Source: Rothia dentocariosa ATCC 17931
GTDB taxonomy: Bacteria > Actinomycetota > Actinomycetes > Actinomycetales > Micrococcaceae
Length of the DNA: 64,000 bases
Direction: 5' to 3'
Assembly: GCF_000164695.2 (NCBI RefSeq)
Contig: NC_014643.1
Span: 434,001 to 498,000, forward strand
In this document: positions 3,753-50,956 of the stretch, in pieces
How positions within the stretch are numbered: the stretch's first letter is position 1
How the letters are laid out: every line of letters starts with the position of its first letter
Translations under genes and position numbers: made by a program
The notes under the pieces: model-generated
Told to the model about the DNA's origin: nothing
Seen by the model: the letters and a program-made list of their open reading frames with translations, nothing else
Databases searched by the model: none

Positions 3753-3779
3753 CCACGACAAAGACTTTGGGAGATTGTC

Positions 3780-4583: not shown

Positions 4584-4607
4584 TCCGTTTGCCCTGTTTC
4601 AGACCAA

Positions 4608-4664
4608 CCCCGCAGATACGCTTTCCTCCAAGTGCTCCGTGAGGAAGGTATCTGCGGGGTTTTT
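4608..4664 (+). terminator. Intrinsic terminator after amino acid ABC operon
   Basis: The arms CCCCGCAGATAC (4608-4619) and GTATCTGCGGGG (4648-4659) are perfect complements. An inner TCCTC/GAGGA stem extends the hairpin, and TTTTT follows. Placed 25 bases after the ATPase stop. Confidence 0.9.
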
Positions 4665-4721
4665 ACCGTTTCACAGAAAACCTGCTCATAACAGCTTTGC
4701 CTGTTTGGGGGAATATACGAC

Positions 4722-4755
4722 AATGTCCCGTATCCGTCGCTGGATACGGGACATT
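4722..4755. repeat. Perfect 14-bp inverted repeat, 6-nt loop
   Basis: AATGTCCCGTATCC and its exact complement GGATACGGGACATT flank GTCGCT. There is no T-tract on either side. It lies between convergent genes (ABC operon and cupin), where a second, bidirectional transcription stop would make sense. Confidence 0.6.
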
Positions 4756-4799
4756 ACCGTGCTTAAAGGGATTTTTATTTATTTCTAAGGCGTTGTGCC

Positions 4800-5177
4800 C
4801 TAGACCTGTTCAACCTCAATAGTGATATTAGGCTCCGGATGTGATTCTCCGGTCAGCATAATGACCATCAAGGTCGAGTCTTCGAGTGCCGTGACCGAGT
4901 GTAACAGCTTTGCCGTGGTGTGGATGAGTTTACCGGGTTCCAGGATAATACTCTGCCCTTTGGTACTGTACTCAACCTTGCCTTTAAGCACCTGCACAAC
5001 CACCGGGTGTACGCTGTGGTGTTCGTGCCAAGATTGACCGGCTGCCAGCTCCATCAGGGTGATGCTGCCGCCATCGGCATCGAGGATTTTCTTTGCCTGC
5101 GGCTTAGTCTCAAAGGGGGTGAGAACTTCGGTGAGCTGTGGGAAAACAAGCACACGCCCTTCGTGAGTACCCGCCAT
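4800..5177 (-). CDS. Cupin-domain protein
   Basis: Small single-domain cupin, 125 residues from the chosen ATG. AAAGG lies 9 bases upstream of that start; the frame stays open to 5240, but that part overlaps an operator-like palindrome. Cupin motif 1 is visible around GQSWHEHHSVHPVVVQVLKG (two to three metal-ligand His) and motif 2 around EPGKLIHTTAKLLHSVTAL. Such proteins bind a metal or small ligand; the ligand here is unknown. It is convergent with the ABC operon and stands alone. Confidence 0.85.
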   Translation of the reverse strand: MAGTHEGRVLVFPQLTEVLTPFETKPQAKKILDADGGSITLMELAAGQSWHEHHSVHPVVVQVLKGKVEYSTKGQSIILEPGKLIHTTAKLLHSVTALEDSTLMVIMLTGESHPEPNITIEVEQV

Positions 5178-5209
5178 GAGTTCTAACCTTTCGCCGATGA
5201 TGGTTGTTC

Positions 5210-5233
5210 TTTTAGGATACGCGCATCCTAAAA
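5210..5233. promoter_or_regulatory. Operator-like inverted repeat upstream of cupin gene
   Basis: TTTTAGGAT and ATCCTAAAA are perfect 9-base arms around a 6-base centre. The site lies 33 bases upstream of the chosen cupin start, where a repressor or activator could bind. No T-tract or gene end is nearby, so a terminator role is less likely. Confidence 0.5.
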
Positions 5234-5317
5234 TTTGCATGAACTATGCTAAATTCTATGCCCGTGTTACGAGGGTAGGCAAACAGTGACATATATATTT
5301 CATAACGTGATACGGCC

Positions 5318-6808: not shown

Positions 6809-6949
6809 ACTTTTTCCCTCCAAAATGTCTGTGATGCGGTGTCTGTAAACACGACATAGAAAACACTATCTCAGGTTAAGCTATGAAAAATACGTGTTTT
6901 CTAAATTCCAAGCTGGGAGTTTACCGAGAATACCTTAAGGAGAAACGCC

Positions 6950-8002
6950 ATGTCATCCGTGCCGCCGCTAGGATACGGGTTCATCACTGAGGGCTTAGCT
7001 TTGCCGCCGTTAGAGCAGGTTTTACGCGCCGTTCGAGTGGTTGATATTCCTATGCGGGTGACCTTCCGCTCGGTCAATCGGCGCCAGAGTGCGCTGATAC
7101 AGGGTCCCGCCGGATGGGGCGAGTTCGCACCGTTTTTAGAGTATGACGATCATGAGGCGGCGGCGTGGTTAGCCTGTGCGTTAGAGTCCGCCTGGCTGGG
7201 GGCGCCGCCCGCTCGTCGAGCCACTATTCCGGTGAACGCAACCCTTCCCGCAGTGAGCGCCGAGCGGATTCCCGAAGTGCTGAACAACTATCGTGGAACC
7301 ATCCACGAGCTTAAAATCAAGGTTGCCGAGAAGGGGCAAACTCTCGACGATGATATTGCCCGCGTTGCGGCAGCGCGGCGTGCCCTCCCGAATGCACGGT
7401 TGAAGGTGGACGCTAATGCGGGGTGGAGCGTACCCGAAGCTCTCGAAGCCCTTGCGGCGCTGAACGAGTACGATCTGCTTTATGCCGAGCAGCCTGTCGC
7501 CACGGTTGATGAGCTTGCGCAGGTGCGTGCCCTGGTGGGCGAGCGCAGTCTTTCGATGCTCATCGCCGCCGACGAATCCGTGCGTAAGGCCAGTGACCCT
7601 CTCAAGGTGGCGCAGGCGCACGCCGCCGATGTGCTGATCGTCAAGGCGGCACCTTTAGGCGGGGTTCGGCGCGCGCTAAAGATCGTTGAACAGGCAGGTT
7701 TACCCACGGTGGTGTCTTCGGCGCTGGAGTCTTCCGTAGGTATCGCGACCGGTGTGTCTCTGGCGGCGGCTCTGCCGGATCTTCCCTATGCGTGCGGGCT
7801 GAGTACGGTCTCGCTGATGAGCGCCGATGTGACTGACGATTCGCTGCTTGCTCGCGATGGCGAGCTCCAGATGCGGCGGGTTGTGCCTACGGAGTCGGCA
7901 CTGAGGCGCGTTGAGGCAGAGGGCGAAGTGCGGGATGCCTGGGTGGAGCGCATCCGACGGTGCTACCTGGTGCTTCAGGAAGCCTTGCCCACGAGTCTTT
8001 AG
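6950..8002 (+). CDS. menC: o-Succinylbenzoate synthase MenC
   Basis: Enolase-superfamily enzyme that dehydrates SHCHC to o-succinylbenzoate in menaquinone synthesis. 350 residues, near the actinobacterial norm. The catalytic KxK is in ELKIKVAEKG. The metal ligands are in KVDANAGWS, YAEQP and IAADES, and the second catalytic Lys in LIVKAAPLGG. AAGGAG lies upstream of the ATG with good spacing. menD follows 102 bases downstream with its own promoter. The PAP2 gene is divergent. Confidence 0.95.
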   Translation: MSSVPPLGYGFITEGLALPPLEQVLRAVRVVDIPMRVTFRSVNRRQSALIQGPAGWGEFAPFLEYDDHEAAAWLACALESAWLGAPPARRATIPVNATLPAVSAERIPEVLNNYRGTIHELKIKVAEKGQTLDDDIARVAAARRALPNARLKVDANAGWSVPEALEALAALNEYDLLYAEQPVATVDELAQVRALVGERSLSMLIAADESVRKASDPLKVAQAHAADVLIVKAAPLGGVRRALKIVEQAGLPTVVSSALESSVGIATGVSLAAALPDLPYACGLSTVSLMSADVTDDSLLARDGELQMRRVVPTESALRRVEAEGEVRDAWVERIRRCYLVLQEALPTSL

Positions 8003-8070
8003 CCAGGTATGTTCTGAACGTTCTGGTCAGTGTTCTGGGGGCTAACTGCCCGTTTAGGGACCCCATATTC

Positions 8071-8104
8071 TTCACTCGCCCAAACACCGGTCTAGAATAG
8101 ACGG
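8071..8104 (+). promoter_or_regulatory. Promoter for leaderless menD
   Basis: A -35-like TTCACT (8071-8076) and a -10 TAGAAT (8093-8098) are 16 bases apart. The GTG of menD begins 7 bases after the -10 box, where transcription should start, and no ribosome binding site precedes it. This fits a leaderless mRNA. Confidence 0.65.
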
Positions 8105-10045
8105 GTGACTGAAAACCCCGACTGTGCCGACACCGTTCAAACTCCCCCCGCTCCAGCCGCTCCAGACTCCATGCTCTCCGCCGTCGCCGTGCTCGATTCC
8201 CTGATTCGCGCGGGCATGCGGCATGTGGTGGTCTCCCCAGGTTCTCGAAGCGCTCCCCTGGCGTATGCGGTTGCGGCGGCCGAAGAGGCAGGTGCGTTGG
8301 TTGCCCACGTGCGCATTGATGAGCGCGTGGCAGCGTTCACGGCGCTGGGTATCGCGAAGGCTTCGCGGCTGCCCGTGGGGTTAGTGTGTACCTCGGGAAC
8401 GGCTCTGGGTGAGTATTTGCCCGCCGTGATGGAGGCTTACCATGCCGGGGTTCCACTGGCGATCATGAGCGCGGACCGTCCCGTAAGGCTGCGTGGAACC
8501 GGTGCTAATCAGACGACGATTCAAACCGATTTTTTCTCTCCCTTTGTGCGCGCAAGCGCTGATTTGACCTCATACCCCGAGCATAATCCGGGGCAGCAGA
8601 CCGCCGATTTTATGGCATGTTTGGCGGCGCTGACGGGCAGCGATGCGCAGGATTGGTCGCGCACAAGCGATGAGCCCGTGGGGCCGGCGCATGTTAACGT
8701 GTGTTTCGATACCCCGCTCACGCCTTCGGCTCGGACAGCCGAAATTCTTCCTACCTGGGCCACATCGCTTGCCGAGCATATTGCCCCGGGGGCCGCATCG
8801 TACCCCGCTGAGCTTGAGCCTGCACAGCTGAGCCCTGTCGAGAAGCTTTGGCTGATTCAGCATGAACAGGTGGCTCAGGCCTCGCCGCTTAAACCCGAAG
8901 GCGCACCAGACTGCCCGAAAACGGTGGTGATCGCGGGAGACGGTGCCGAGCCGTTCGCTGCCGAGTTTGCCCGCGCGTTGAATCTGCCGCTACTGGCAGA
9001 GCCTTCTTCGCAGGCGCGGCACGGCGCTACCGCGATTCCCCAGTACACGACGGTACTCGGGGAACATGCGGCTTCCGAGCTGGGGCAGAGTATCGAGCGA
9101 ACTATTTTATGCGGGCATCCCACGCTTTCGCGCCCTATTTCTGCGCTTTTAGCGCGTACCGATGTGCAGCATGCTTACTATGCGCCTCGGCGCGCCAGCT
9201 GGTACGAACCCGGCACCCGTGCCGTTCGCGAGATTGATTCGCCCGCCGAACTTGAAGCCTTTGCGCTTATGGGATCGGGCGTGCGGGCCGATGATTCCTG
9301 GCTTGATGCTTGGGTCACTGCCGGTCAGCGAGCTCAGGAGGCATCGCTCACGTCGATCGAAGCCTACCGTTATGCCAAGTCTGAAACAGTGCATCCGCAG
9401 GCCTCTATTCCATCCGAGGAATGTCACCAAGACGGTGCATATACTTCTCAGCCTGCTAGAATTCCCGCTCAGGCGCTTGCACTCCAAACCTGGAATACAT
9501 GCGCACAGCAGCATCGAACCCTTGTCGTCGGATCATCGAGTATTGTGCGCGATCTAGATATTATCGCCCCCGCTCTTGGTGCCGATGCGCCCGCACGGGT
9601 TCTCGCAAACCGCGGGCTTTCCGGCATCGACGGGCTTATCGCAACGGCTGTCGGCGTTTCTTTAGCGGGCTACTACCCCACCGGCAACGCACGCACGGCT
9701 GCCGATGATTCCGCCCATGTAGCGGGCGCACCGATTCCGGTTACCCTCATATGCGGCGATTTGACCTTTCAATACGACATTTCTGCACTGAACCTGCCCA
9801 TGACGGAGCTTCTGCCCGATCTTGACGTCGTCGTCTATGACGACGCCGGAGGCAGTATTTTTACCGCGCTGGAACATGGCACTCTCGCCCAGAATCCACA
9901 ATTTGCCCGCGCCATCGAGCGGTTCTTCACGGTTCAGGCGGCACCGAATACGGATTTGGAACGCATGGCGGCAGGCTTTGGTGAGGAGTCAGGTATTCGG
10001 GTGCGCATTCACCGCCCGAACGATATTTTCGATACCCAAGCTTAG
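8105..10045 (+). CDS. menD: SEPHCHC synthase MenD
   Basis: Thiamine-diphosphate enzyme that joins 2-oxoglutarate to isochorismate, the first committed step of menaquinone synthesis. 646 residues, somewhat longer than typical (about 550-600). Visible are VVSPGSRSAPLAYA, the Glu that activates thiamine in VRIDERVAAF, and the diphosphate-binding region GDLTFQYDISAL with VVYDDAGGSIF. The extra length falls in linker regions in the middle of the protein. The GTG start fits a leaderless transcript. Confidence 0.95.
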   Translation: MTENPDCADTVQTPPAPAAPDSMLSAVAVLDSLIRAGMRHVVVSPGSRSAPLAYAVAAAEEAGALVAHVRIDERVAAFTALGIAKASRLPVGLVCTSGTALGEYLPAVMEAYHAGVPLAIMSADRPVRLRGTGANQTTIQTDFFSPFVRASADLTSYPEHNPGQQTADFMACLAALTGSDAQDWSRTSDEPVGPAHVNVCFDTPLTPSARTAEILPTWATSLAEHIAPGAASYPAELEPAQLSPVEKLWLIQHEQVAQASPLKPEGAPDCPKTVVIAGDGAEPFAAEFARALNLPLLAEPSSQARHGATAIPQYTTVLGEHAASELGQSIERTILCGHPTLSRPISALLARTDVQHAYYAPRRASWYEPGTRAVREIDSPAELEAFALMGSGVRADDSWLDAWVTAGQRAQEASLTSIEAYRYAKSETVHPQASIPSEECHQDGAYTSQPARIPAQALALQTWNTCAQQHRTLVVGSSSIVRDLDIIAPALGADAPARVLANRGLSGIDGLIATAVGVSLAGYYPTGNARTAADDSAHVAGAPIPVTLICGDLTFQYDISALNLPMTELLPDLDVVVYDDAGGSIFTALEHGTLAQNPQFARAIERFFTVQAAPNTDLERMAAGFGEESGIRVRIHRPNDIFDTQA

Positions 10046-10078
10046 GTTACACCTTACCCCTTCTAAGGTTCGCAGAGT

Positions 10079-10140
10079 AAAACCTCCGCGCAGGAACGCA
10101 CCATAATCTCAAAATGGTACGTACCCTATACGGAGGTTTT
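10079..10140. terminator. Bidirectional terminator between menD and MBL gene
   Basis: AAAACCTCCG (10079-10088) and CGGAGGTTTT (10131-10140) are perfect complements with A- and T-tracts on the outer sides, so the stem can stop transcription from both convergent genes. The loop holds a small GGTACGTACC palindrome. Confidence 0.65.
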
Positions 10141-10202
10141 CAGAAATTCTTATGAATATGACGATATATGTCATACCCAGTCGTCATATGTCTGCGCTTA
10201 TG

Positions 10203-11096
10203 CTAGTGCAGGCTGCCAATCGTGATAGGACCGGTGTATCCGGTGGTTTCAGAGCTGTCGGTGGGCACTTCGGTACCGTCAAGCTGCGCCATACGATCCA
10301 GCAAGAACCGGGTAGGTCCGGGTGCATAGGGCAGGTGGTACATGGCGGCGGTGGTACTCGCATCATTCGGGTCAATAGTTGAATGGCGAATAGCGTAAAT
10401 AGCCTTCTTCATGGTCTCCTGAAAACGTTCCACAAAGTCACGCTCTACGGGGTCGCCGCAGCCAGGCACGTAGACGCGGTAACGATCAAGCTCAAGAAGC
10501 GCGCCTAGGGTCTCTACCCAACGATCGGGGAAAGAGTCTTCAAAGGACGGATCGGTCCCCTGCTCCAGCAGACCGCCCGTAAAGAGCACATCGTCGATGC
10601 CCACCAAGATATCGCCCTCGGTATGTCCGGGACCCAAGTAGATGAGGGTTGCCGAGCGTTCCCCCAGATCAACCGGGGTAAAGGTAATGCCTTCCCCGCT
10701 TTGGGCAACCAGATGATTTGGCACCACGATATCGGTTGCCGCTCCCTGGTGGTGTGCCATCTCAGGTTCTAGGGTCTCCACATAAAGACGCTGCCTATCC
10801 CCGTATTTCTTGATAGCGCGCGCCGCCCGCGGGTGCGACCAAAACTCTTCGGTGCCCATAGCCGCAAAAACGTCGTTTCCGAAATAACGCTCGGGGTGTG
10901 CGTGCGTATTGACGACGACGAGGGGCATACGGGTGATACGACGAACCTCATCATAAATTTCGGTTGCCTGTCGAGGTCCTGCACCGGTATCGATCACGAG
11001 TGCTTTCTCAAGACCGAGGATGAGTCCGGTATTTAGACAGTAGTTATCGGTTGCAATACGATAAACACCGTCCGCTAGTTCAATCGTGGTTGCCAT
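10203..11096 (-). CDS. Metallo-beta-lactamase-fold hydrolase
   Basis: 297 residues from the ATG at 11096; the frame is open to 11159, but the N-terminus MATTIELADGVYRI matches where MBL domains start. Metal ligands appear in NTHAHPERYFGND (HxHxxxx pattern) and GPGHTEGDILV, with a later Asp in DDVLFTGGLLEQG. The layout resembles subclass B1-like hydrolases and glyoxalase-II relatives, so the substrate is unknown. Divergent from gluQ with a 173-base spacer; convergent with menD. Confidence 0.88.
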   Translation of the reverse strand: MATTIELADGVYRIATDNYCLNTGLILGLEKALVIDTGAGPRQATEIYDEVRRITRMPLVVVNTHAHPERYFGNDVFAAMGTEEFWSHPRAARAIKKYGDRQRLYVETLEPEMAHHQGAATDIVVPNHLVAQSGEGITFTPVDLGERSATLIYLGPGHTEGDILVGIDDVLFTGGLLEQGTDPSFEDSFPDRWVETLGALLELDRYRVYVPGCGDPVERDFVERFQETMKKAIYAIRHSTIDPNDASTTAAMYHLPYAPGPTRFLLDRMAQLDGTEVPTDSSETTGYTGPITIGSLH

Positions 11097-11269
11097 ACTT
11101 CTAACGGTACTCGACTTTAGCGTCAGATACGGAATATTTTTATAAAGGTTTAATAACACACTTGCGAATGTTTATCACGAAGTTCCCCATGAGGTTGTTA
11201 TCATTTTGTTATTTTTTGCCGCATCCCATGGCGTGAGGCACTTTTAGAGGTACCGCTAGGATTAAAACC

Positions 11270-12262
11270 ATGAGCTTACACAGCAGCAGCACCGCCCAGG
11301 ATTCTTTCGCAATGCACACTCCTTCTTCACCAGGTGCAGGCAGGTACGCACCATCCCCCTCTGGAGACCTGCATCTGGGCAATCTGCGCACAGCAATTCT
11401 CGCATGGCTTCTCGCACGACAAGAGGGACTGCGCTTTGTGATGCGTATCGAAGACCTCGATCGCGTGCGCCCCGGTGCCGCCGAACAGCAGCTCGCCGAT
11501 TTAAAATCTTTGGGGCTCGATTGGGATGCAACGCCCGGCGAAGACCCGCAGCGCCGCGACCATGTTTTACGCCAGAGCACACGACTTGCCGCCTACGATG
11601 CCGCCGTGCAGAAGCTCCAGGATGCAGGGCTGCTCTACGAGTGCTATTGCACGCGCCGTGAGATTTTGGAGGCAACCTCAGCACCGCACGGCATCCCCGG
11701 CTCCTATCCAGGGACATGCCGAAGCCTGAGTGATGCCGAGCGTGAATCTCGGCGTGAGATACGCCCTCCCGCCCTGCGCTTGCGCGCCGAAATCAGTGAA
11801 TTTACGGTACAGGATATGTTTGCCGGTGAGTACACGGGCGCCGTCGATGACGTGGTGGTTCGCCGCAACGACGGCACCTATGCTTACAACCTAGCCGTCG
11901 TGGTCGATGACCATTATCAGGGTGTAACCCAGGTGGTGCGCGGAGACGATTTATTATCTTCCGCTCCGCGCCAGGCATACTTGGCAGCACTCCTGGGGTA
12001 TGAACTGCCCCTCTATGCCCACGTCCCCCTAGCCCTCAACACGGAAGGTAAGCGTCTAGCGAAACGCGACGGCGCGGTAACGCTGAGACAGCTTCGGGAC
12101 GCAGGGTTTGCAGAGTCCGATATTTTGGAGTGGGTTCGCGCCTCCATTCCCATTCCTGATGCCCCACAGTTCCCGAAATCGGCGCAGGATTTCCTGGAAT
12201 ACTTCGATCCTAAAGCCATGAGCCCCAAGCCGTGGATCATTACAAATCCTTTAGATTTATAA
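11270..12262 (+). CDS. gluQ: Glutamyl-Q tRNA(Asp) synthetase
   Basis: Truncated glutamyl-tRNA synthetase paralogue (YadB) that glutamylates queuosine at position 34 of tRNA-Asp. The HIGH-like motif is in APSPSGDLHLGNLRTA and the KMSKS equivalent in KRLAKRDGA. Zinc ligands are in YECYCTRRE and SYPGTC. It ends after the catalytic domain at 330 residues, with no anticodon-binding domain, as expected. AGGA lies 8 bases before the ATG; a start at 11312 is also possible. Confidence 0.93.
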   Translation: MSLHSSSTAQDSFAMHTPSSPGAGRYAPSPSGDLHLGNLRTAILAWLLARQEGLRFVMRIEDLDRVRPGAAEQQLADLKSLGLDWDATPGEDPQRRDHVLRQSTRLAAYDAAVQKLQDAGLLYECYCTRREILEATSAPHGIPGSYPGTCRSLSDAERESRREIRPPALRLRAEISEFTVQDMFAGEYTGAVDDVVVRRNDGTYAYNLAVVVDDHYQGVTQVVRGDDLLSSAPRQAYLAALLGYELPLYAHVPLALNTEGKRLAKRDGAVTLRQLRDAGFAESDILEWVRASIPIPDAPQFPKSAQDFLEYFDPKAMSPKPWIITNPLDL

Positions 12263-12563
12263 GAAGCAAAAGCATCACCACACGCCACGCGTTCACGTTG
12301 TGGTCAAAGCAACCTCAAGAGCCGCGAATTTTCGGGGTCGTTTCGCCAAAATTTCCCACATAAAACCACGCTTTACCACGGCATACCTCGTATGATGTGA
12401 ATATATATTCAGCAGTATGCAAACACGCTGAATGCATTACGAGTTGGTAAATCCATTCCGAGCGGTTAGACTGTATCCCAAGCCACTCATAAAGTCATAG
12501 AGTTGCGCATAATTACACAGATAGTTACGTAACGAAATCCCAACCACTAGATAGGAATGAGAG
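12263..12563. other. Intergenic region upstream of putP
   Basis: No gene is supported. AT-rich upstream half with TATATTC-type stretches. A perfect 10-bp palindrome GTTACGTAAC at 12524-12533 lies 31 bases before the putP start and may be a regulator site. Confidence 0.35.
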
Positions 12564-14060
12564 ATGACCGACGGTACGTTCCAAGTCATCGCACTGGCGA
12601 TTTACTTCATCGCCATGATTGTGATTGGTCTGTGGGCAAACAGTAAAAACAACGACCTTGACGACTATGTGCTTGGAGGACGACAGCTCTCCCCCACCGT
12701 CGCGGCTCTCTCGGCAGGCGCCGCAGATATGTCCGGCTGGCTCCTGATGGGTTTGCCCGGCGCTGTCTATTTAGCCGGTCTTTCCAAATCATGGATTGCT
12801 ATCGGTCTGACAATCGGCGCATGGGTCAACTGGAAATTCATCGCCCCCCGTCTGCGCAGCTACACCGAAGTCGCTGGCGATGCCGTTACCGTCCCCGTGT
12901 TCCTCAGCAACCGACTGCACGATAAATACAATATTCTGCGTATTTTTGCAGGCATTATTATCCTCGTCTTCTTCACCTTCTACGTCTCCTCCGGCATGGT
13001 TGCTGGCGGTAAATTCTTCGAGTCTTCCTTCCACCAGGATTACCTCACCGGTATGCTTCTCGTCGCCGGTATCACCATGTTCTACACTTTCTTCGGCGGC
13101 TTTATGGGTGCTTCCTACACCGATATGGTGCAGGGTCTTCTGATGCTCGCCGCGTTGATTGCCGTGCCGATCGTGGCTATTACCAATATGGGCGGACTCG
13201 ACCACGTCACGGATGCCGTCGCCAACGTTCGCCCCGACGCCCTGGGACTTTTCGCGGGAACGACGTTCATCGGTATCGCTTCGGCGCTCGCCTGGGGCCT
13301 GGGATACTTCGGTCAGCCGCATATTATCGTGCGTTTTATGGCACTGCGCACCCCCAAGGATGCGAAAGCCGGGCGTCGCATCGGCATGAGCTGGATGCTC
13401 CTGACCGTGGTAGGCTCCATCAGCACGGCGTTCGTGGGCGTAGCCTACTTTGCAACCCACCCCGAAGTTTCTCTCACCGATAAGGAAAGTGCGGAGACAG
13501 TCTTCCTGGATCTCGCGCAGATTCTCTTCCACCCCTTTATCGCCGGTATGATCCTGGCTGCCGTACTCGCAGCTATTATGTCTACGCTCTCCTCGCAGCT
13601 CGTGGTCTGCTCCTCGGCTCTCGTGGAAGATCTTTACGGTGTCTTTGTGAAGAAGAAGCTCAGCTCAAACCAGTCACTCTGGCTTGGACGTGCGGGCGTA
13701 GCGATTGTGGCGGTCATCGCGACTCTCATGGCGCTCGATAAGAACAACTCGATTCTCTCGCTCGTGGAGTTCGCTTGGGCAGGCTTTGGTTCGGCCTTCG
13801 GTCCAATCGTGATCCTCTCACTGTACTGGCGCAAGCTCACCCTACCGGGCGCGGTCTCGGGCATGGTCGTGGGTGCTGTCGTCACCTTCTTCTGGCGCCA
13901 GATCTTCAACCTCACCGAAACGATCGATGTTTACGAGATGATCCCCGGGTTCTTCCTAGCCTTCCTGGTGACCGTCGTGGTCTCTCTGGCTACCTACCAG
14001 AAGAATGAGGAAATTGAACAAGAGTTCGATAAGGCCGCAGAGCTCGCCAAGGCTGGCTAA
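12564..14060 (+). CDS. putP: Sodium/proline symporter PutP
   Basis: Sodium:solute symporter family, 498 residues, about 13 hydrophobic segments, the usual length for PutP. The opening LAIYFIAMIVIGLWA and LDDYVLGGRQLSPTVAALSA match the N-terminal sodium site region; GAADMSGWLLMGLPGA is the PutP signature. It imports proline (or a related amino acid) with sodium, for nutrition or osmoprotection. Monocistronic, followed by a strong terminator. Confidence 0.94.
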   Translation: MTDGTFQVIALAIYFIAMIVIGLWANSKNNDLDDYVLGGRQLSPTVAALSAGAADMSGWLLMGLPGAVYLAGLSKSWIAIGLTIGAWVNWKFIAPRLRSYTEVAGDAVTVPVFLSNRLHDKYNILRIFAGIIILVFFTFYVSSGMVAGGKFFESSFHQDYLTGMLLVAGITMFYTFFGGFMGASYTDMVQGLLMLAALIAVPIVAITNMGGLDHVTDAVANVRPDALGLFAGTTFIGIASALAWGLGYFGQPHIIVRFMALRTPKDAKAGRRIGMSWMLLTVVGSISTAFVGVAYFATHPEVSLTDKESAETVFLDLAQILFHPFIAGMILAAVLAAIMSTLSSQLVVCSSALVEDLYGVFVKKKLSSNQSLWLGRAGVAIVAVIATLMALDKNNSILSLVEFAWAGFGSAFGPIVILSLYWRKLTLPGAVSGMVVGAVVTFFWRQIFNLTETIDVYEMIPGFFLAFLVTVVVSLATYQKNEEIEQEFDKAAELAKAG

Positions 14061-14082
14061 GGTCTGAACTTCTGTTCACAGA

Positions 14083-14123
14083 TTTGCCCCGATCCGCGCA
14101 TTACGGATCGGGGCAAATTTTTT
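14083..14123 (+). terminator. Intrinsic terminator after putP
   Basis: TTTGCCCCGATCCG (14083-14096) pairs perfectly with CGGATCGGGGCAAA (14104-14117); a T run follows. The A/T flanks on both sides allow use by the convergent minus-strand gene too. Confidence 0.9.
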
Positions 14124-14170
14124 AATATTTTCAGCTCTAGCCTCTGTCTAGGGACTAATTCACGCGGCTT

Positions 14171-15553
14171 TTAGAGCGTGCCCGCCATCAGTTCCTGGCA
14201 CCATTTCTGGATCGGGTGGCTCGCCTCCAGCAAGGCTCTGCGCAGGATGCGGTACGTTTTCGCATCCGTAGCATCATCAACGTTGAAGAGTTCCTGCTCA
14301 ATCTCGTAGCGCGGCTCTCGCAGCTGGTCGAGATGCTGCAATTCGTCCAGCGTTAGCACGCGCACCACCCCATAGTTGTACCCCGTGTGCTCGTTATTCT
14401 CGGGAACATACACGCTCCGGGCGAAAGAGGGACTGTCCTCCTCAAAAATCGTGTTCTGAAAGTTCGTGGTGTCGAGATACGCCGAATCCTCAAGATTGAC
14501 GGGGCCGGCAAAATGCGAATCGGAAAAATCGACGGAATCGTTATAGATAGAATCCCCGAACGTGGCCTCCTGCAAATAGGTCGAATGCCAGAACCATGCC
14601 CGACCGTAATAGACGCTCTTGCTCAGGTTCGCGCGCCCGCCATAGGTGCACCGGTCAAGATCGGCGAAGGTCGCGTAGGTGCTCAAAAACAGGTCTGCGC
14701 CGCGCCTGTAATCGCAGTTCCCCAGGCTTGCGTGACCCACATAGGTGCAGCAGGCAAGATCAGCGTGCCCCTCATAAATACTGTCGTTCAGGGCAGCCTC
14801 ACCCCAGTACACGTTGTAACTCAGGCTGGCGTTGGCACGGTACACGGACTCGCTGAAATCGACGTTCCCGCGGTAGTTACAGAAGCTCGCGTTAACCCCT
14901 CCGTTGTAAGTCGAAGCGCTGAAATCGGCCTCTGTGTAATAGGCGGAATTGCTGCAATCTAAATACCAGGTGTAGGTGGAACCCGAAAAATCGGCCTCCG
15001 CATAGTAGGTGCACCCGCGCAGGTTCAAGCGTCCCTCCCATTGCGAGCGCCCAAAGCTAACCGGATAGAAGAACACGCTACCCGAAAAATCGAAGGAGAG
15101 ACGGCTCCACGGTCCCGGTCCCTCGTAGCGGGGCATAACCCTCAGGTGAATGGTATCGAGAACGGTTTGGCGGAACCGCGCCTCAGCACGGAACTCGGCT
15201 TGTTCGGCGCGGAATCGTGCTTTTTTCTGGGAATCCCAGCGTTTCTTCGGTTCTCGGTTCAGCCGCATATAGTCTTTATGCCTGGAGGCGGGCAGGAATG
15301 GGGCATAGATGCACGCGCAAAACGTATCGATAATAACCTGTGCCTCGGCAAGGCGCTGTTCTTCGGGGGTGCGCTCATCCGCAAGCCACTCATCGGCAAG
15401 ACGCACCAGAGCGTTAAACCCTCCCACGCGCGTGGCAAATCCGCTCTCCCCTAAAAGCGCGGTCGCCGCCGCATACCGTTCATGCCGCATTGCATGAAGG
15501 TGGATGAGGGAATCATCAGGTGTTGCAGAAGTTCGCGACGTGTACTCTGACAT
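14171..15553 (-). CDS. 11-residue-repeat (pentapeptide-like) protein, soluble form
   Basis: 460 residues. An N-terminal helical domain (RHERYAAATALLGESG, then VRLADEWLADERTPEEQ) resembles the regulatory domain often found before pentapeptide repeats. Then comes FDFSGSVFFYPVSF and about 19 repeats of exactly 11 residues with pattern A-D/N-F/L-x-x-S/C-x-Y-x-x-x, and a C-terminal cap with NNEHTGYNY. Unlike the other three members it has no membrane segments. It belongs to the same family as the genes at 44275, 46273 and 48157. The fold is probably a beta-solenoid; function unknown. Convergent with putP and divergent from the RloA gene. Confidence 0.85.
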   Translation of the reverse strand: MSEYTSRTSATPDDSLIHLHAMRHERYAAATALLGESGFATRVGGFNALVRLADEWLADERTPEEQRLAEAQVIIDTFCACIYAPFLPASRHKDYMRLNREPKKRWDSQKKARFRAEQAEFRAEARFRQTVLDTIHLRVMPRYEGPGPWSRLSFDFSGSVFFYPVSFGRSQWEGRLNLRGCTYYAEADFSGSTYTWYLDCSNSAYYTEADFSASTYNGGVNASFCNYRGNVDFSESVYRANASLSYNVYWGEAALNDSIYEGHADLACCTYVGHASLGNCDYRRGADLFLSTYATFADLDRCTYGGRANLSKSVYYGRAWFWHSTYLQEATFGDSIYNDSVDFSDSHFAGPVNLEDSAYLDTTNFQNTIFEEDSPSFARSVYVPENNEHTGYNYGVVRVLTLDELQHLDQLREPRYEIEQELFNVDDATDAKTYRILRRALLEASHPIQKWCQELMAGTL

Positions 15554-44274: not shown

Positions 44275-46092
44275 ATGGACGACCACCGCCTCAACGCAGA
44301 GTCACGCATACAAAGCATTACAGAACCGCCGCTTTTAGAACCTTCTAAGCAGCGGACTGCCAGACCTATCGCCTGGTCGATTCTTATATGCGCGATTCTC
44401 TGCGTAATAGCCGCAATTATTATTCCATTCCTCACCAAACAAACCACTCTCTCACTTGTGCTGTATGCGATCGGCGGTGTGCTCACAGTTCTCGCACTCA
44501 TCGTATTCACCCGCCGGAACCGGTCAAGCGTGGCGACGGTCGCCCACAAAAGCGTTGATATTTTTGGCGTTACACGTGCAGAACGTGAGTCTATCTACCA
44601 GCAAGCTACCGCTCAGCTTGAGGATCAGCAGGCGAAAACGCGGCAGAAAAGTCTCTATACCCTGCTTGCGCTCGTCGATAAATGCCTTGAGGACGAAACT
44701 TTAAGCTACGAAGACCGCAATAAGGAGGGGCAGCGCATTGTCAATAAGATCAGCGGGTACATTCAGTCTCCGCCGATTTTTGACCCGCACGCCCTGGAGC
44801 TTACGCACGGCGCATTTCACGCGAAGAGCGCCCTTCTGCGCGAAGAAGCTGAGCTGCGTTTCGGCCTGATGCAGCAGATTCGTGACCGTCTGCGCGCCCC
44901 CTCGGATGCGGGCGGCTACCAGGACGGCCCGTGGACGAACTTTGAATACGATTTTTCGGGAAGCACCTTCTTCTACCCCATCGAGTTCAGCCGAGTCTTC
45001 TTCAATAAGACCGCTGATTTCAGCGGGTGCACCTACAGGTACGAAGCCGATTTTAGCGGCACGATCTACCGTAACTGGGCGGATTTCCGCGGTTCTACCT
45101 ATCTGGCGCACGCAAACTTTAGTGGGTCTTCGTACCACGGCGCGGCATCGTTGAACGATTCCGTATACCGCAGCACCGCAGACTTTAGCGGCAACCTGTA
45201 CCTGGATCAGGCGAACTTTAGCGGGTCTACGTACCATGAGGCGGTAACTTTCGTGAATTCCACGTACCGCAACTGGGCGGTGTTCCGTAACTCAACGTAC
45301 CTTGGCGCGGTGGATTTCAGCGGCTCTGTTTATCATAATCAGGCGAACTTCCATAACTCCGTCTACACCGGTACCGTGACCTTCAACAGCTCCGTTTATC
45401 ATAATCAGGCGAACTTTCATAACTGCGTGTACACGCGGGTGGCAAGTTTTGGCGACTGCACCTATCATCGGGCGGATTTCAGCGGGTCTGTCTACACGGA
45501 CGACGTGCATTTCAATCACTGCCGTTACGGTGGCGATGTGTATTTCCGCCGGTCTGTTTATAACGGTTGGGCTGATTTTCAGGGTTCGGTGTACAGCAAG
45601 TGGGCGAATTACACGAGCTCGCTGTACTACGGTCTGGCGGGGTTCCAGAACTCGACGTATGCCGACAAGGCGCTCTTTAGGGGTTCCGTGTATGGTAATG
45701 CGGTAACCTTCCAGGGTTCTGTCTTTACCGGCGCGGCGCCCGCTTTCATGAATGTTGAGGCGTGGGCGCAGTACATTTCGTTCTTCGCACCGACGGAGAA
45801 TGTCTTCTCGCTGGGGCAGGGCTACTCTATCGACACCGGTGCATCCGGGCTGCCGAGCGAGTGCCCGCCACTGGCTGTGGAGCATCGGCAGTATTTGGCG
45901 CATAAGAACGGCGAGCTGCACGAGATCACCCAGCATCTTCACGGCGACGATGCGCGCAGCACCGATAGGCTGGGTCTAACCAAGGAACTTTCGGGCAGGC
46001 TAAAGTCTACCGTTGAGGAACTGCACGCCTGGCGCGAGAAAATCACGACAATCCCGCTGCAGGAGCAAGACCGCCAGCAGGTAGGGGTTTAG
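44275..46092 (+). CDS. 11-residue-repeat (pentapeptide-like) membrane protein 1
   Basis: 605 residues. Two membrane segments lie near residues 27-75 (WSILICAILCVIAAIIIPFL, LVLYAIGGVLTVLALIVF). A helical domain follows (ERESIYQQATAQLEDQQAK), then the family mark FEYDFSGSTFFYPIEFS. There are 22 tandem repeats of 11 residues, e.g. ADFSGTIYRNW and ANFSGSSYHGA, with a single 10-residue unit near residue 405. The C-terminal cap ends in a coiled coil (LKSTVEELHAWREK). AAGGAG lies 8 bases before the ATG. First of three tandem paralogues; the period of 11 does not match ordinary pentapeptide repeats. Function unknown. Confidence 0.87.
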   Translation: MDDHRLNAESRIQSITEPPLLEPSKQRTARPIAWSILICAILCVIAAIIIPFLTKQTTLSLVLYAIGGVLTVLALIVFTRRNRSSVATVAHKSVDIFGVTRAERESIYQQATAQLEDQQAKTRQKSLYTLLALVDKCLEDETLSYEDRNKEGQRIVNKISGYIQSPPIFDPHALELTHGAFHAKSALLREEAELRFGLMQQIRDRLRAPSDAGGYQDGPWTNFEYDFSGSTFFYPIEFSRVFFNKTADFSGCTYRYEADFSGTIYRNWADFRGSTYLAHANFSGSSYHGAASLNDSVYRSTADFSGNLYLDQANFSGSTYHEAVTFVNSTYRNWAVFRNSTYLGAVDFSGSVYHNQANFHNSVYTGTVTFNSSVYHNQANFHNCVYTRVASFGDCTYHRADFSGSVYTDDVHFNHCRYGGDVYFRRSVYNGWADFQGSVYSKWANYTSSLYYGLAGFQNSTYADKALFRGSVYGNAVTFQGSVFTGAAPAFMNVEAWAQYISFFAPTENVFSLGQGYSIDTGASGLPSECPPLAVEHRQYLAHKNGELHEITQHLHGDDARSTDRLGLTKELSGRLKSTVEELHAWREKITTIPLQEQDRQQVGV

Positions 46093-46272: not shown

Positions 46273-47844
46273 ATGAAAAGCAAGAAACAGCTCTATATGG
46301 AGTATCAGCCTGAAGAAAATCCTAGACTACACAAAGCATGGTCGTGGACAAAACGGTGGTGGCTACCAATTGCAATTGTGCTGATTACCAGCGTTGGGTT
46401 AGTGTGCGCTCTTTCTATTCCGCAAAAGGTTTTTCAGACTCCTGCTAATCCTGACGACAAAAGTGCTTCTGTTTTACTAGCTCAGAGCAACCTGCGATTA
46501 GCCTTTCTTTATATAACTGGTGGTGCCATTGCAGTACTAGGTCTTATCGAAACGTTTCGCAGGAACAATAACGAAAAGCTCAAGAACGATCAGGAAAAAG
46601 AGAAACACGACAAGGAACACAGGCGACAAGTTAGAGCAGAGCGTCGAGAACGGTACACCAAAGCTGTTGAACAATTAACGCACAAAGAGGCCCCTGCCCG
46701 CATAGGTGGAATCTACACACTTGTAGGACTCGTAACTGAATGGCTTGAGGATGAAAATCTATCTGAGTATGAAAAAACCAGAGAAGGACAGTTTATTATT
46801 AATAACTTGTGTGCCTATATACGTTCACCTTTCGCACTGTCTTCACATTATGATGAACTTATGCAAGATAAACCTACAGGAAGCTATCAAGAAAAACCAG
46901 ATAAATTTTATTCAGACAAAGCTACTCTTAACGCAGAAAAAGATGTTCGGCTAATTATTATCAAAGAAATACGTGATCGTCTACAGAAATCTACGCAAGA
47001 AGAATCGGGAACATGGTCAAATTTTGAATACAATTTTTCGGGAAGTACATTTTTCTATATCGTAGATTTTAAAGGTTCATATTGGAATAATTTATGTAAT
47101 ATGAAAAACTGTACATACTTAGAAGATGCTGATTTTTCTGGATCGAAATATACAGGTCTATTATATAGGAAAAACTGTAAATATAAGAAAAAAGTATCGT
47201 TTGAAAGTTCTATCTACAACCAGCCTAAATTAGAAAACAGTCAAAAATATTATTTCTTGTCATTTGAAGGTTCAGTCTACGAAGATACTGTTACATTTAA
47301 ATGGTCCCATTATTATGTTAATGTAAAATTTTCCAGCCCGGAATCTCCTTCTAAATATAAGAATGTTGCTGATTTTACTGACTCTACATACAAAGAGGAA
47401 GTTTATTTAGAATATGCATCTTATATGTCATCAGCATTATTTTATATCTCTACATACTATTCACTCGCATCATTCGCAAATTCCATCTATCATGATCAGG
47501 TGGACTTCAGTCAATCAACATATATGAATATAGTTAAATATGATCATAATATATACATAAAGTCTGTAGATTTCTCCTATTCAAACTACTATTATACTCC
47601 CAGCTTTTCTACGCACTATAACGAAGGATCACTATTTTCTTATCTACACCTTTCTTCCTTTATGGTTTCAAAAAACAGTAATTCATTGATCGTACATCCA
47701 AATGAGAGTTTACCCCCTAACTGCCGTAAAATAAGCACAAAAGAAAATACTGCCTATAATTACATGCGAGAAAACAGCTCTCTTGAAGAATTAGAAAAAT
47801 GGCTGCGGGAACTACAATCTGCCCAAAATAGCAATGAATCGTAA
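46273..47844 (+). CDS. 11-residue-repeat (pentapeptide-like) membrane protein 2, AT-rich
   Basis: 523 residues from the ATG at 46273 (AGGAG 9 bases upstream; the frame opens at a GTG at 46234). Two membrane segments near the N-terminus (WWLPIAIVLITSVGLVCAL, LAFLYITGGAIAVLGLIE) are followed by a charged coiled coil. The domain RERYTKAVEQLTHKEAPARI comes next, then FEYNFSGSTFFYIVDF. The repeats are more degenerate than in its neighbours, with several insertions between units (e.g. before ADFTDSTYKEE). Codon use is strongly AT-rich from about 46.8 kb on. Probably a diverged or transferred paralogue; function unknown. Confidence 0.83.
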   Translation: MKSKKQLYMEYQPEENPRLHKAWSWTKRWWLPIAIVLITSVGLVCALSIPQKVFQTPANPDDKSASVLLAQSNLRLAFLYITGGAIAVLGLIETFRRNNNEKLKNDQEKEKHDKEHRRQVRAERRERYTKAVEQLTHKEAPARIGGIYTLVGLVTEWLEDENLSEYEKTREGQFIINNLCAYIRSPFALSSHYDELMQDKPTGSYQEKPDKFYSDKATLNAEKDVRLIIIKEIRDRLQKSTQEESGTWSNFEYNFSGSTFFYIVDFKGSYWNNLCNMKNCTYLEDADFSGSKYTGLLYRKNCKYKKKVSFESSIYNQPKLENSQKYYFLSFEGSVYEDTVTFKWSHYYVNVKFSSPESPSKYKNVADFTDSTYKEEVYLEYASYMSSALFYISTYYSLASFANSIYHDQVDFSQSTYMNIVKYDHNIYIKSVDFSYSNYYYTPSFSTHYNEGSLFSYLHLSSFMVSKNSNSLIVHPNESLPPNCRKISTKENTAYNYMRENSSLEELEKWLRELQSAQNSNES

Positions 47845-48156
47845 AAATCATATACTAATACCAAACATTCATTCATGATAAATATAATATTCAAAGCAAT
47901 CAGGATACCATCATTACTTAGCTATTTAACACTCACAACAGAGTCTAGATTCAACACCCCAATAAGGATCCATCGAGCTCTGCGAAGCCAGAGCGGATGA
48001 TAACTCACAAAGGTATGTAATATTCTACAGTCGCTGAAGTGGCAGATATGTATAAAGTAATCCTTGAGTCAAAATCTAGGAAAATCTGATATATGAGCTG
48101 AAGGTGCGATAGAGTAGAAAAGGAACACACCACTCACTCAGAGGAATAGATAGTTA
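47845..48156. other. AT-rich intergenic region
   Basis: No gene, hairpin or repeat of note. AGAGGA 12 bases before the next start is the likely ribosome binding site. Confidence 0.4.
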
Positions 48157-50170
48157 ATGCCAGAAGAATACGAAGATGTAGAGGCTACGTTAGAACAGGG
48201 CACCACGTCAGATGCTCCACAGCAGAAGGAGAAAAGACAGGAGCAGTTTGTATGCTGGCTCAAATCCCGGCCAATTAATAAGATCGTAGGTAGTACCCTC
48301 ATCATCGAAGCGCTGTGGGTAGCCTTATTCTGGTTCATGCCTCAAGTCCTCCACTGGTGGAGTTGGAACCCAGCTGTTAGTGCCGAGCATTTCGCACAGT
48401 TCTATTTTGCTTGGGGTCTTGGGTTCCTCTCACTCGGATATATAGTGCTGATTCTGTGGCCCATTTTCAGGAAAGATGATGATCCTCGCTGGTTCCACGC
48501 ACGTATTCTTTCTAGTGGCATAGTGGGTGGCTCATATGCGTTCCTGTTACCTGTTGTTATGAGCCTACCTGAAGGCAGCGTTAATTCTGGTGGAGCGGCG
48601 GCTCTTCGGCAAGCAATTCTTCTAGCGACAGGTGGGCTTATTGCTCTTATTGCGCTCGGGGAGACTCGTCGCAAAAACGATAATGACCGTGAAGCAGCTG
48701 AGAACCTTCGGATTCATCAACAAGATACTCTTGACCAACAGAAAGAACAGTTTGAGAAGCAGCTAGAAAAACAACAAAAACAGTTTGAAGCGAATGCATT
48801 TAAAGAACGTAAAGCAGAACGCCGAGAACGGTATACTAAAGCGGTAGAACAGTTAGGCGATGAGAAAGCACCTGTTCGTATGGGTGGCGTATATACACTC
48901 GTTGGACTTGTGGATGAATGGCTTGAAGAAGAAAATCTGTCTGAGTCTGAAAGAGTCAAGGAAGGGCAGGTTATCATCAATAACCTGTGTGCTTATATCC
49001 GTTCTCCGTTTACTCTTGCTTCTCACTATGATGAGCTATCTCAAAATACCCCTCTATCCGAAGGAATATATAAAGATAAAGAACAAGAATTCTACGCAGA
49101 CAAAGCGACGTTAGATTCTGAAGCAGACGTTCGTCTAGGAATTATTAAAGAAATTCACGACCGTCTACAAGGCTCTGGCAAAAACGCACCGGGGGCATGG
49201 TCAGACTTTGAATACGATTTCTCGGGAAGCACCTTCTTCTACCCTGTAGACCTCACAAAATCCTATTACAAAAAAAACTGTTAAGTTCAGTGGCTCCACC
49301 TATAAGGAAGGGGCTGACTTCATCGGCTCCACCTACGAGGGCGGGGCTTACTTCACCGGCTCCACCTACAAGGGCTGGGCTAACTTCATCGGCTCCACCT
49401 ACAAGGGCTGGGCTTACTTCACCGGCTCCACCTACAAGGGCTGGGCTAACTTCATCGGCTCCACCTACAAGGGCTGGGCTTACTTCACCGGCTCCACCTA
49501 CAAGGGCTGGGCTTACTTCACCGGCTCCACCTACAAGGGCGAGGCTGACTTCACCGGCTCCACCTACAAGGGCGAGGCTGACTTCACCGGCTCCACCTAC
49601 AAGGGCGAGGCTGACTTCACCGGCTCCACCTACAAGGGCGAGGCTGACTTCACCGGCTCCACCTACAAGGGCGAGGCTTACTTCACCGGCTCCACCTACA
49701 AGGGCCGGGCTAACTTCATCGGCTCCACCTACAAGAGTTGGGCTGACTTCAGCGGGTCTATTTTCTGTAGTGAAATATATTTTGGCTACAGCACGCACAG
49801 CGACAGTTCTTCTCGCTTCACAGGTTGCGCCCCTCAGTTTTATAACAAGACAAACCGTAAAAACACACTTTTTGGCTCGCATAATAATGATTTTACGGCG
49901 GATACCAGCGAAGGTTATCCTATTAATCTAAATTCCGAAGGCATACCTCCTGGCTGTAAATTCCTTACTTCAGAACAGAAGGAATACCTTGCAGATAAGT
50001 TCCAAGAAATAGAAGAAACGAATAATAAACTTCTTAAGGTAAAAGATCCCAAAGAGAAGGCAGAACTCTCGAAAAAGCTGCAAACTCTTAACGAAGAACT
50101 CCATGGATGGCGCAAGGAAGCTACCACAGTAAAAGTGGAAGACGTAGAAGCAGAAGATACAGAGAGCTAA
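48157..50170 (+). pseudogene. 11-residue-repeat membrane protein 3, split by a frameshift at an A8 tract
   Basis: The reading frame from 48157 stops at 49284, directly after the family mark YDFSGSTFFYPVDL. The repeats and C-terminal cap continue in the next frame from 49283 to a TAA at 50168. The shift lies at a run of eight A (49270-49277): with seven A the frame reads YKKTVKFSGSTYK and is continuous to 50170, about 670 residues. N-terminal part: four hydrophobic segments, a Gln/Lys/Glu coiled coil (QQKEQFEKQLEKQQKQFEAN), then RERYTKAVEQLGDEKAP. C-terminal part: 13 near-identical repeats and a coiled-coil end (LQTLNEELHGWRKE). Either phase-variable, frameshift-translated, dead, or a sequencing error. 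Confidence 0.8.
49313..49741 (+). repeat. 33-bp minisatellite, 13 units, encoding 11-residue repeats
   Basis: Thirteen consecutive units of 33 bases, no gaps. All but the edge units share the core GGCTCCACCTACAAGGGC. Variants fall in blocks: units with TGG at the end (2-6), then GAG (7-11), with GCTTACTTCACC alternating with GCTAACTTCATC in units 2-5. This pattern suggests recent copying of one- and two-unit blocks. It is much richer in GC than the flanking parts of the same gene. Confidence 0.93.
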
Positions 50171-50175
50171 TCAAC

Positions 50176-50230
50176 CTGTAGAGTTTTGGGGACAGCTATT
50201 TCTTTAATAGCTGTCCCCAAAACTCTACAG
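50176..50230. terminator. Perfect 25-bp inverted repeat after repeat-protein gene 3
   Basis: The arms 50176-50200 and 50206-50230 are exact complements (starting CTGTAGAGTTTTGGGG) with a TCTTT loop. It starts 5 bases after the stop codon. There is no T-tract outside the stem, but the stem itself is very stable. Confidence 0.7.
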
Positions 50231-50280
50231 CTCTCCCCTAGTACACGAAAATACCGGCGGCTTATGTAGCCGCTCGTCCT

Positions 50281-50365
50281 TACTCCACCACCAAAGTTTT
50301 CAGGTTCAGTGGCGTACCAGTAACTCCATCAGATGCTCTAGGCACCTCAAAATCAGGTTCTCGTA
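50281..50365 (-). pseudogene. Decayed copy of the 3' end of the Ppx/GppA gene
   Basis: About 85 bases match the last 85 or so bases of the gene at 51182-52153, in the same orientation, at roughly three quarters identity by eye with a one-base indel. The end reads TPLNLKTLVVE plus stop against TPLDPKTLVGE plus stop in the intact gene. Together they bracket the SUKH gene. Confidence 0.7.
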
Positions 50366-50395: not shown

Positions 50396-50956
50396 TTATT
50401 TCTCTTGATAGACATAATCCTTGAAATAGTCAGGGTCGCCATCGCTGTCTAGCCAGAGCTCAAACCAGCCGAGGAAGTCCTGGCGCTCACAGCAGGGGCT
50501 AACACCAACATCCGAAAAGCTCCACACCTCACCAGCGCACGACCCGGCGGTAATCAGCTCATAAGTCATGCCGCATCCTTCATCCATGAGCTCAACACCC
50601 TGGTTACCCAGCTTATGCTCAAAGGAGTCATCACTCAGCTGCTCTTCGTCCTCCTCAACCTCCCAAAGCCAACCGTCCGTGAGCGTCATCGGGAGGGAAA
50701 GGTCTTTGCGCTCAATCTCTGCGAGCCGGTGAATGGAACTGGTGCTGATGCCCTCCGTCGCCGGGTCGTTCCAGCCGTCACCAACCTCAAGCAGAAACAG
50801 CCTGTACGCCTGCGGCAGGCGGGTGTTGCAGGCACGCTCAAAAGCGATAATGTCTGCCTCCGAAACGGTAGGCCCCAGGTCGATATTCTTCTGAGCGATT
50901 TTAGCTTTAATACGCTCGATCACGGCCGGGTATTCTTCAGATGTATAGATGGGCAC
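50396..50956 (-). CDS. SUKH/SMI1-KNR4 family protein
   Basis: 186 residues of the SUKH fold. The N-terminus has VSEADIIAFERACNTRLPQA, and LFLLEVGDGWNDP is the conserved start of the SMI1/KNR4 domain. DEGCGMTYELITAGSCAGEV and WSFSDVGVSPC follow. FLGWFELWLDSDGD is the usual end. Family members are mostly immunity proteins against polymorphic toxins. No toxin gene is next to it. It lies between the intact gppA and a decayed copy of the gppA end, so it was probably acquired. Confidence 0.85.
   Translation of the reverse strand: MPIYTSEEYPAVIERIKAKIAQKNIDLGPTVSEADIIAFERACNTRLPQAYRLFLLEVGDGWNDPATEGISTSSIHRLAEIERKDLSLPMTLTDGWLWEVEEDEEQLSDDSFEHKLGNQGVELMDEGCGMTYELITAGSCAGEVWSFSDVGVSPCCERQDFLGWFELWLDSDGDPDYFKDYVYQEK

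What the first reader, a model, noticed from the sequence alone, without database searches (positions are those of the whole stretch)
48157..50170. Possible phase-variable repeat protein: frameshift at an A8 tract between anchor and repeat domain
The membrane anchor and the repeat/cap domain lie in adjacent frames, and the join is a run of eight A (49270-49277). One A fewer restores a single 670-residue frame that matches both paralogues upstream. A homopolymer at this spot could switch the gene on and off, or allow transcriptional slippage or a frameshifted full-length product. The repeat and cap frame past the shift shows no decay, as expected if it is still used.
Basis: partly seen in the sequence, partly recalled or inferred. 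Interest (0 to 1): 0.72.

Follow-up and report, generated by a model that had tools for sequence, protein, structure and literature searches.

The report
Frameshifted repeat protein at A8 tract
A membrane-anchored repeat-protein gene in an oral Rothia bacterium is cut in two by a run of eight A's, and relatives broken in either direction at the same short A-run suggest that the run is a natural slippage hot spot, though whether it is a purposeful on/off switch is unproven.

Summary
A 375-residue anchor frame (48157-49284) stops just after an A8 run (49270-49277); the PF13576 repeat plus cap frame continues one frame over to 50170. The genome is a Rothia, probably R. dentocariosa. Natural relatives (P0001-P0004, P0238: 370/373 anchor residues identical; P0005: 95%) are in frame through the same junction and differ in 33-nt repeat number. 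Others are broken at the same place: of 47 fetched proteins with the Lys-Lys/Lys-Asn junction 7 are out of frame there, in both directions; of 279 without it, 0. P0199 and P0202 share an identical anchor part, and their tails can be read from one DNA in two frames for 81 residues. The genome has no mutS1 match and carries NucS, which does not repair small indels in M. smegmatis. A slippage hot spot giving off alleles is supported. A dedicated phase switch is not: a minority of fetched alleles carries the run, other frameshifts occur in the family, and the A8 was seen in one assembly, where error cannot be excluded. Recoding to full length is unlikely: the A AAA AAC heptamer leads to the wrong frame, and the repeat frame has no standard start codon before 50135.

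The parts
48157..49284 (+). anchor part: four predicted TM helices, coiled coil, conserved RERYTKAVEQLGDEK..VRMGGVYTLVGL helical region, first FEYDFSGSTFFY solenoid strand; ends KKNC-stop
48283..48657 (+). four hydrophobic helices (residues 43-61, 82-100, 117-135, 149-167); K/R-rich flanks at both ends suggest both ends cytoplasmic
   Evidence: hydropathy on relative P0238, same numbering; helices within 46-168 in the AF2 model of P0003, at pLDDT under 50
49270..49277 (+). A8 run at the frame junction; only homopolymer of 6 or more in the gene and longest in the window
49272..49278 (+). A AAA AAC heptamer in the anchor frame (classic -1 slippery form, recalled); a -1 shift here leads to the third frame, not the repeat frame
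   Evidence: sequence, frames; downstream RNA fold z -2.11, within repeats
49277..50167 (+). repeat plus cap piece in the next frame, 297 codons without stop; no ATG/GTG/TTG before 50135
49292..49755 (+). 33-nt (11-aa) tandem array, 14.1 copies, unit GSTYKGEADFT type; copy number varies in close relatives
49742..50167 (+). 142-aa C-terminal cap, identical to P0001, P0002, P0004, P0005; helical hairpin near its end in the model of P0003
49278..49931 (+). third frame, open through the array (..SSVAPPIRKGLTSSAPPTRAGLTS..); relatives P0178 and P0179 carry an anchor joined to this kind of tail
46273..47844 (+). intact paralogue (PF13576 24.9 bits, below the cut-off of 27; 62% identity to anchor residues 148-375)
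44275..46092 (+). intact paralogue with PF13576 repeats; no homopolymer above 5 near the junction

Best explanation
The gene encodes a four-TM, coiled-coil-anchored protein whose C-terminal pentapeptide-type solenoid (11-residue units) is predicted to face the cytoplasm. In this strain the A-run at the anchor/solenoid junction has slipped in DNA replication, so the product is most likely a 375-residue anchor without solenoid or cap, i.e. an off (null or truncated) allele. Such slips should be frequent because this actinobacterium has no recognisable MutS and has NucS, which ignores small indels in a relative; they are seen in both directions, so they are in principle reversible. Shown: the frames, the run, in-frame relatives, recurrent shifts at the homologous junction, no mutS1 match. 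Inferred: replication slippage as cause, loss of function, reversibility, cytoplasmic side. Not shown: that selection maintains it as a switch.
For: Close relatives in frame with the same residues at the junction (KKTVKFSGS) in 6 fetched proteins. Shifted junctions in 7 of 47 Lys-Lys/Lys-Asn alleles against 0 of 279 others (Fisher p 8.6e-7, or 3e-4 with only 4 distinct junction strings counted; in the list alone 7 of 27 against 0 of 73, p 5.5e-5). P0199/P0202: identical through SYY (244 residues), tails readable from one DNA in two frames for 81 residues; the next best of the 39 in-frame proteins tried gives 39. mutS1 has no match in the genome, found in 11 of 14 controls; NucS present. NucS does not repair 1-2 bp indels in M. 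smegmatis (PMC11551767, passages).
Against: A8 was seen only in this assembly; DNA of the other shifted alleles, and of the in-frame R. dentocariosa alleles, was not available, so their run lengths are inferred from protein. P0202 comes from one large contig of unknown sequencing method. The three anchor residues shared by P0001-P0004 and P0238 (R5, K11, G163) differ in the window, so these are not the same strain. The seven shifted proteins are not independent (three share KNLLIS, two KKLLS), and the junction strings were chosen after the sequences had been seen. MutL and other MutS types were not searched.
Confidence: 0.66

Rival explanations
1. Assembly or sequencing error in the homopolymer; the gene is intact in the strain.
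For: Homopolymer indels that cause apparent frameshifts are a known sequencing artefact (PMC9600527, passages on nanopore). The six closest fetched relatives are in frame. The cap shows no decay.
Against: Shifts at the homologous junction recur in other records and in both directions, among them a protein with 3 member sequences (P0058), one with 5 (P0178) and one on 4 contigs (P0121); none at 279 fetched junctions without the run. An error model would also have to hit what were probably runs of about 6 A in those records.
Confidence: 0.18
2. Dedicated contingency switch: the run is kept by selection so that populations hold on and off cells (true phase variation).
For: Recurrent two-way shifts at one domain junction; on/off pair P0199/P0202; intact downstream frame.
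Against: Only 47 of 326 readable junctions carry Lys-Lys/Lys-Asn; paralogues 44275 and 46273 have no A-run there; frameshifts also occur in repeats and cap (P0083, P0126, P0137, P0150, P0166, P0196, P0228, by eye); a R. aeria copy is broken at several places (by eye); run lengths of 6-8 are short.
Confidence: 0.22
3. Plain pseudogene formation in a redundant, fast-evolving family: the shift is one-way decay seen early.
For: Several relatives in the same genome (8 matches, some in one frame; 21 PF13576 matches); another family copy broken at several sites.
Against: Only one lesion seen, and the cap is unchanged; shifts at the homologous junction go both ways.
Confidence: 0.35
4. Recoding or transcriptional slippage at the run still makes the full-length protein.
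For: A AAA AAC heptamer in frame; downstream fold z -2.11; intact repeat frame.
Against: A -1 shift leads to the third frame, not the repeat frame. Eight A's is short for polymerase slippage (recalled). The fold sits in tandem repeats and is weak evidence.
Confidence: 0.07

Closest known systems
Homopolymer frameshift silencing and 'frameshift scars' in a NucS actinobacterium (M. tuberculosis; PMC8339072, abstract and section 7 seen)
   Same: indels in low-complexity coding sequence, no MutS/L (PMC9346131 passages), proposed reversible silencing
   Different: here one fixed domain junction of a solenoid family, with the shifted reading giving a truncated anchor or an alternate-frame tail; reversal not observed
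Classic contingency loci (homopolymer tracts, usually G, in Campylobacter; PMC8713573, passages)
   Same: tract-length change switches a reading frame
   Different: A6-A8 rather than poly-G; the tract is present in a minority of fetched alleles; no switching rate known
Pentapeptide repeat proteins, PF13576 (MfpA, Qnr, YjbI recalled as proteins of the wider fold)
   Same: repeats match PF13576; short strand pairs at 5- and 6-residue spacing in the model
   Different: membrane-anchored with coiled coil and helical cap; near-identical 11-aa units; no PDB sequence, PADLOC or above-cut-off NCBIfam match

Membership tests
Pentapeptide_3 (PF13576) repeat proteins | score above the Pfam cut-off | tested here: met
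   109.7 bits against cut-off 27 for the downstream piece
Pentapeptide_3 (PF13576) repeat proteins | right-handed quadrilateral beta-helix | tested here: inconclusive
   AF2 of relative P0003: short strands between 344 and 432, pLDDT about 80 there, whole model 54.4; no PDB fold match at E<=0.001
Phase-variable (contingency) gene | tract-length variants of the same gene in nature | tested here: met
   at the level of database records: P0199/P0202, window against P0238; run lengths inferred from protein, sequencing error not excluded
Phase-variable (contingency) gene | reversible switching within one clone at elevated rate | not testable with these tools
   no reads or cultures
Phase-variable (contingency) gene | tract conserved as such across the family | tested here: not met
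   47 of 326 readable junctions carry Lys-Lys/Lys-Asn
Programmed -1 frameshift gene | slippery heptamer joins the two functional frames | tested here: not met
   A AAA AAC leads to the third frame, not the repeat frame
NucS-type mismatch repair host | NucS present, MutS absent | tested here: met
   NucS_C match 137 bits; no mutS1 (TIGR01070) match; MutL not tested

The most novel reading that the evidence does not exclude
A three-layer diversification system for an intracellular, membrane-anchored solenoid in oral Rothia. The A-run at the anchor/solenoid junction selects between full solenoid, bare anchor and an alternate-frame Pro/Thr-rich tail. Tandem 33-nt units change solenoid length. Recombination among paralogues swaps anchors and solenoids. 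It would be antigenic-variation-like machinery acting inside the cell, plausibly against phage or rival-borne factors.
Probability: 0.17. Interest if true: 0.75.

Novelty: new member of a known kind. Interest (0 to 1): 0.47.

Why it matters
It gives a concrete, natural test case for how MutS-less actinobacteria generate off alleles at short A-runs, in a human oral commensal and in a fast-diversifying repeat family whose function is unknown. If tract length changes within clones, it would be a switch on an intracellular solenoid, which would be unusual among phase-variable genes (as recalled, mostly surface or restriction genes).

Tried and rejected
PADLOC gave no match; NCBIfam gave only matches far below cut-off. 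The PDB sequence search gave nothing at E<=0.01, and the fold search nothing at E<=0.001 (the model is weak overall). The genome-contig scan returned one locus, R. aeria. Sigma-70 scan of 47840-50300: 0 promoters, shuffles 3.3 on average. In print: the searches (9 papers; 2; 3; 0; 1; 2) listed no title on Rothia phase variation or a phase-variable pentapeptide protein. Of these papers I saw passages in PMC13004514, PMC8713573, PMC10128031 and PMC9600527, which were not about this gene; the rest I saw as listings only. (38 papers, 12 listed) was seen as a listing. Considered and rejected: independent start for the repeat domain; -1 recoding to full length; the tract as a statistical oddity by count. 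The idea that unit number must be even (full coils) fits this allele group (4,4,6,8,10,14 and 14 in the window), but one search shows 11-residue steps in one of the two groups it formed, and the P0019-P0037 series also has 11-residue length steps.

A first script's shift classifier failed (it printed 0 shifts in each class, labelled P0121, P0158 and P0221 in frame and four others unclear). Its rows were read by eye, p values were computed from that reading, and the recount was scripted with the same result; the junction strings were chosen after seeing the sequences. 20 of 346 proteins without the junction motif were dropped from the count.

Full report
WHERE IT IS. The window is 434001-498000 of a single-contig genome of 2,506,025 bp. 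The named relatives in the lists are from Rothia dentocariosa and R. aeria, and the one named locus is R. aeria. The length equals, from memory, that of R. dentocariosa ATCC 17931; no call names the strain.

WHAT THE SEQUENCE SHOWS. The anchor frame 48157-49284 encodes 375 residues and ends ..SYYKKNC-stop. An A8 run (49270-49277) precedes the stop. The next frame is open from 49250 to 50167 and holds fourteen 11-residue units and a 142-residue cap. TRF gives 14.1 copies of 33 nt at 49292-49755. PF13576 is found only in the downstream piece. The repeat frame has no ATG/GTG/TTG before 50135, so the domain cannot be started on its own by a standard start. The third frame is open through the array to 49931. 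A8 is the only run of 8 or more A or T in the window, against 2.31 in shuffles. The genome has 20 such tracts (22 matches, two overlapping pairs). The run is therefore rare but not improbable.

ANATOMY. Hydropathy of the relative P0238 gives four TM segments within 43-167 with K/R-rich flanks at both ends, which suggests by the positive-inside rule (recalled) that the solenoid is cytoplasmic. AlphaFold2 on the relative P0003, with 56 of the 346 fetched proteins as alignment, gave helices 46-70, 79-104, 111-135, 146-168 (all at pLDDT under 50), a long helix 180-234, helices to 337, short strands between 344 and 432 with pLDDT about 80, and a C-terminal helical hairpin. Overall pLDDT is 54.4 and pTM 0.45. 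Foldseek against the PDB found nothing at E<=0.001, so the solenoid fold rests on PF13576 and the strand pattern.

RELATIVES IN FRAME. Six proteins (P0001-P0005, P0238) read through the junction as KKTVKFSGS. P0001-P0004 and P0238 match the window's anchor at 370 of 373 residues, all differing at the same three (5, 11, 163). P0005 is one residue longer before the junction and scored 95%. Their caps match at 142/142 (P0001, P0002, P0004, P0005), 141/142 (P0003) and 140/142 (P0238). Their arrays have 8, 6, 4, 4, 10 and 14 units (P0001, P0002, P0003, P0004, P0005, P0238) against 14 in the window. The shift in the window is thus recent, and array length changes faster than the flanks.

RELATIVES OUT OF FRAME AT THE SAME PLACE. 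The three protein searches listed the top 120 of 5292, 1446 and 4930 hits, 346 distinct proteins in all. 326 had a readable junction. 47 carry Lys-Lys or Lys-Asn after SYY; 7 of these are shifted: P0058 (KKTC, end), P0178 and P0179 (KKLLSS..), P0202 (KNPLIS..), P0121, P0158 and P0221 (KNLLIS..). 279 carry other residues (mostly Ala-Lys, Thr-Lys); 0 show one of these shifts. Fisher p is 8.6e-7, or 3e-4 when only 4 distinct junction strings are counted. All seven are in the list, which favours short proteins; within that list alone the figures are 7 of 27 against 0 of 73, with 20 without motif, p 5.5e-5. These are cluster representatives and not independent, so 7 of 47 is not a population frequency. 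P0121 and P0158 have identical 119-residue tails on anchors only 42% alike over 109 aligned residues, so shifted tails appear to have moved between paralogues.

ONE ALLELE IN TWO FRAMES. P0199 (in frame, ENA, longest contig 1,305 bp) and P0202 (shifted, NCBI, contig 2,654,331 bp) are identical through SYY (244 residues). One DNA can encode both tails in two frames for 81 consecutive residues; among the 39 in-frame proteins tried the next best gives 39, then 13. For the other shifted proteins no such near-perfect partner was found: the best are 40 residues (P0121, P0158), 15 (P0221) and 12 (P0178, P0179). A R. aeria genome holds an in-frame gene with 89% identity to P0202's N part (218 of 245) and a run of six A's at this place in its DNA. 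Whether P0202's contig is error-free cannot be told; nanopore assemblies do err in homopolymers (PMC9600527, passages).

WHY SLIPPAGE IS PLAUSIBLE. mutS1 (TIGR01070) has no match in this genome, while 11 of 14 control genomes ring; NucS is present. MutL was not searched. NucS does not repair 1-2 bp indels in M. smegmatis (PMC11551767, passages of section 15), and mycobacteria show a raised frequency of frameshifts in homo-oligonucleotide runs (PMC9346131, passages). Reversible silencing by indels has been proposed for M. tuberculosis (PMC8339072, abstract and section 7).

AGAINST A DEDICATED SWITCH. The run is a minority allele in the fetched set. The two intact paralogues in the window lack it. 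Shifts elsewhere in the family are seen by eye (P0083, P0126, P0137, P0150, P0166, P0196, P0228 among others). A R. aeria remnant is broken at several places (by eye). The simplest account is an indel hot spot in a redundant, fast-evolving family; selection for switching is possible but unproven.

RECODING. The anchor frame contains A AAA AAC at 49272-49278, and the RNA downstream folds at z -2.11 (5 of 200 shuffles fold at least as well). A -1 shift there gives the third frame, not the repeat frame. A full-length product would need another kind of slip, for which there is no evidence here.

VERDICT. Observation confirmed; interpretation partly supported. The most likely state in this strain is an off allele made by slippage (0.66), with assembly error as the main alternative (0.18). 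The pseudogene and switch rivals are readings of the same off allele, so those probabilities overlap with the 0.66.

Noticed in passing
P0142, P0143, P0146, P0168-P0170, P0172, P0174, P0188, P0189, P0191, P0192, P0194, P0197 (tails): The same anchor and helical region is joined to a different C-terminal domain (..KLHLNVVNISGSLDTTGIYTKEG.. or ..YLDTVNIYGSLDTTG..); three of these scanned against Pfam gave no match above cut-off and two were read in full. The anchor seems to carry more than one kind of C-terminal domain.
   Followed up: partly
L036 (G001:C1:855000-872000), 3525-14411 minus: R. aeria carries a tandem array of family genes; successive genes are separated by only a few bases (..QRTR-stop-..-MPEKHN..) and some lack the TM anchor; a remnant copy (3525-4446) is broken at several places.
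   Followed up: partly
P0121 and P0158: 119-residue tails 100% identical, anchors 42% identical: recombination between paralogues.
   Followed up: partly
window 49292-49755 and P0001-P0005, P0238: The seven alleles of this group have an even number of 11-aa units (4,4,6,8,10,14,14); one 22-residue coil would be two units. 11-residue steps occur in other groups.
   Followed up: partly
window 50396-50956 minus: SMI1/KNR4 (SUKH-1) protein just downstream (PF09346, 27.9 bits against cut-off 25.4), a family often found as immunity proteins (recalled).
   Followed up: no
window 50176-50230: Inverted repeat with about 25-bp arms and a 5-base loop just after the stop codon, seen by eye; not reported by the terminator scan.
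   Followed up: no
window 46273-47844: Middle paralogue has G+C 35.6% against 55.9% for the window and 55.2% for the first paralogue.
   Followed up: no
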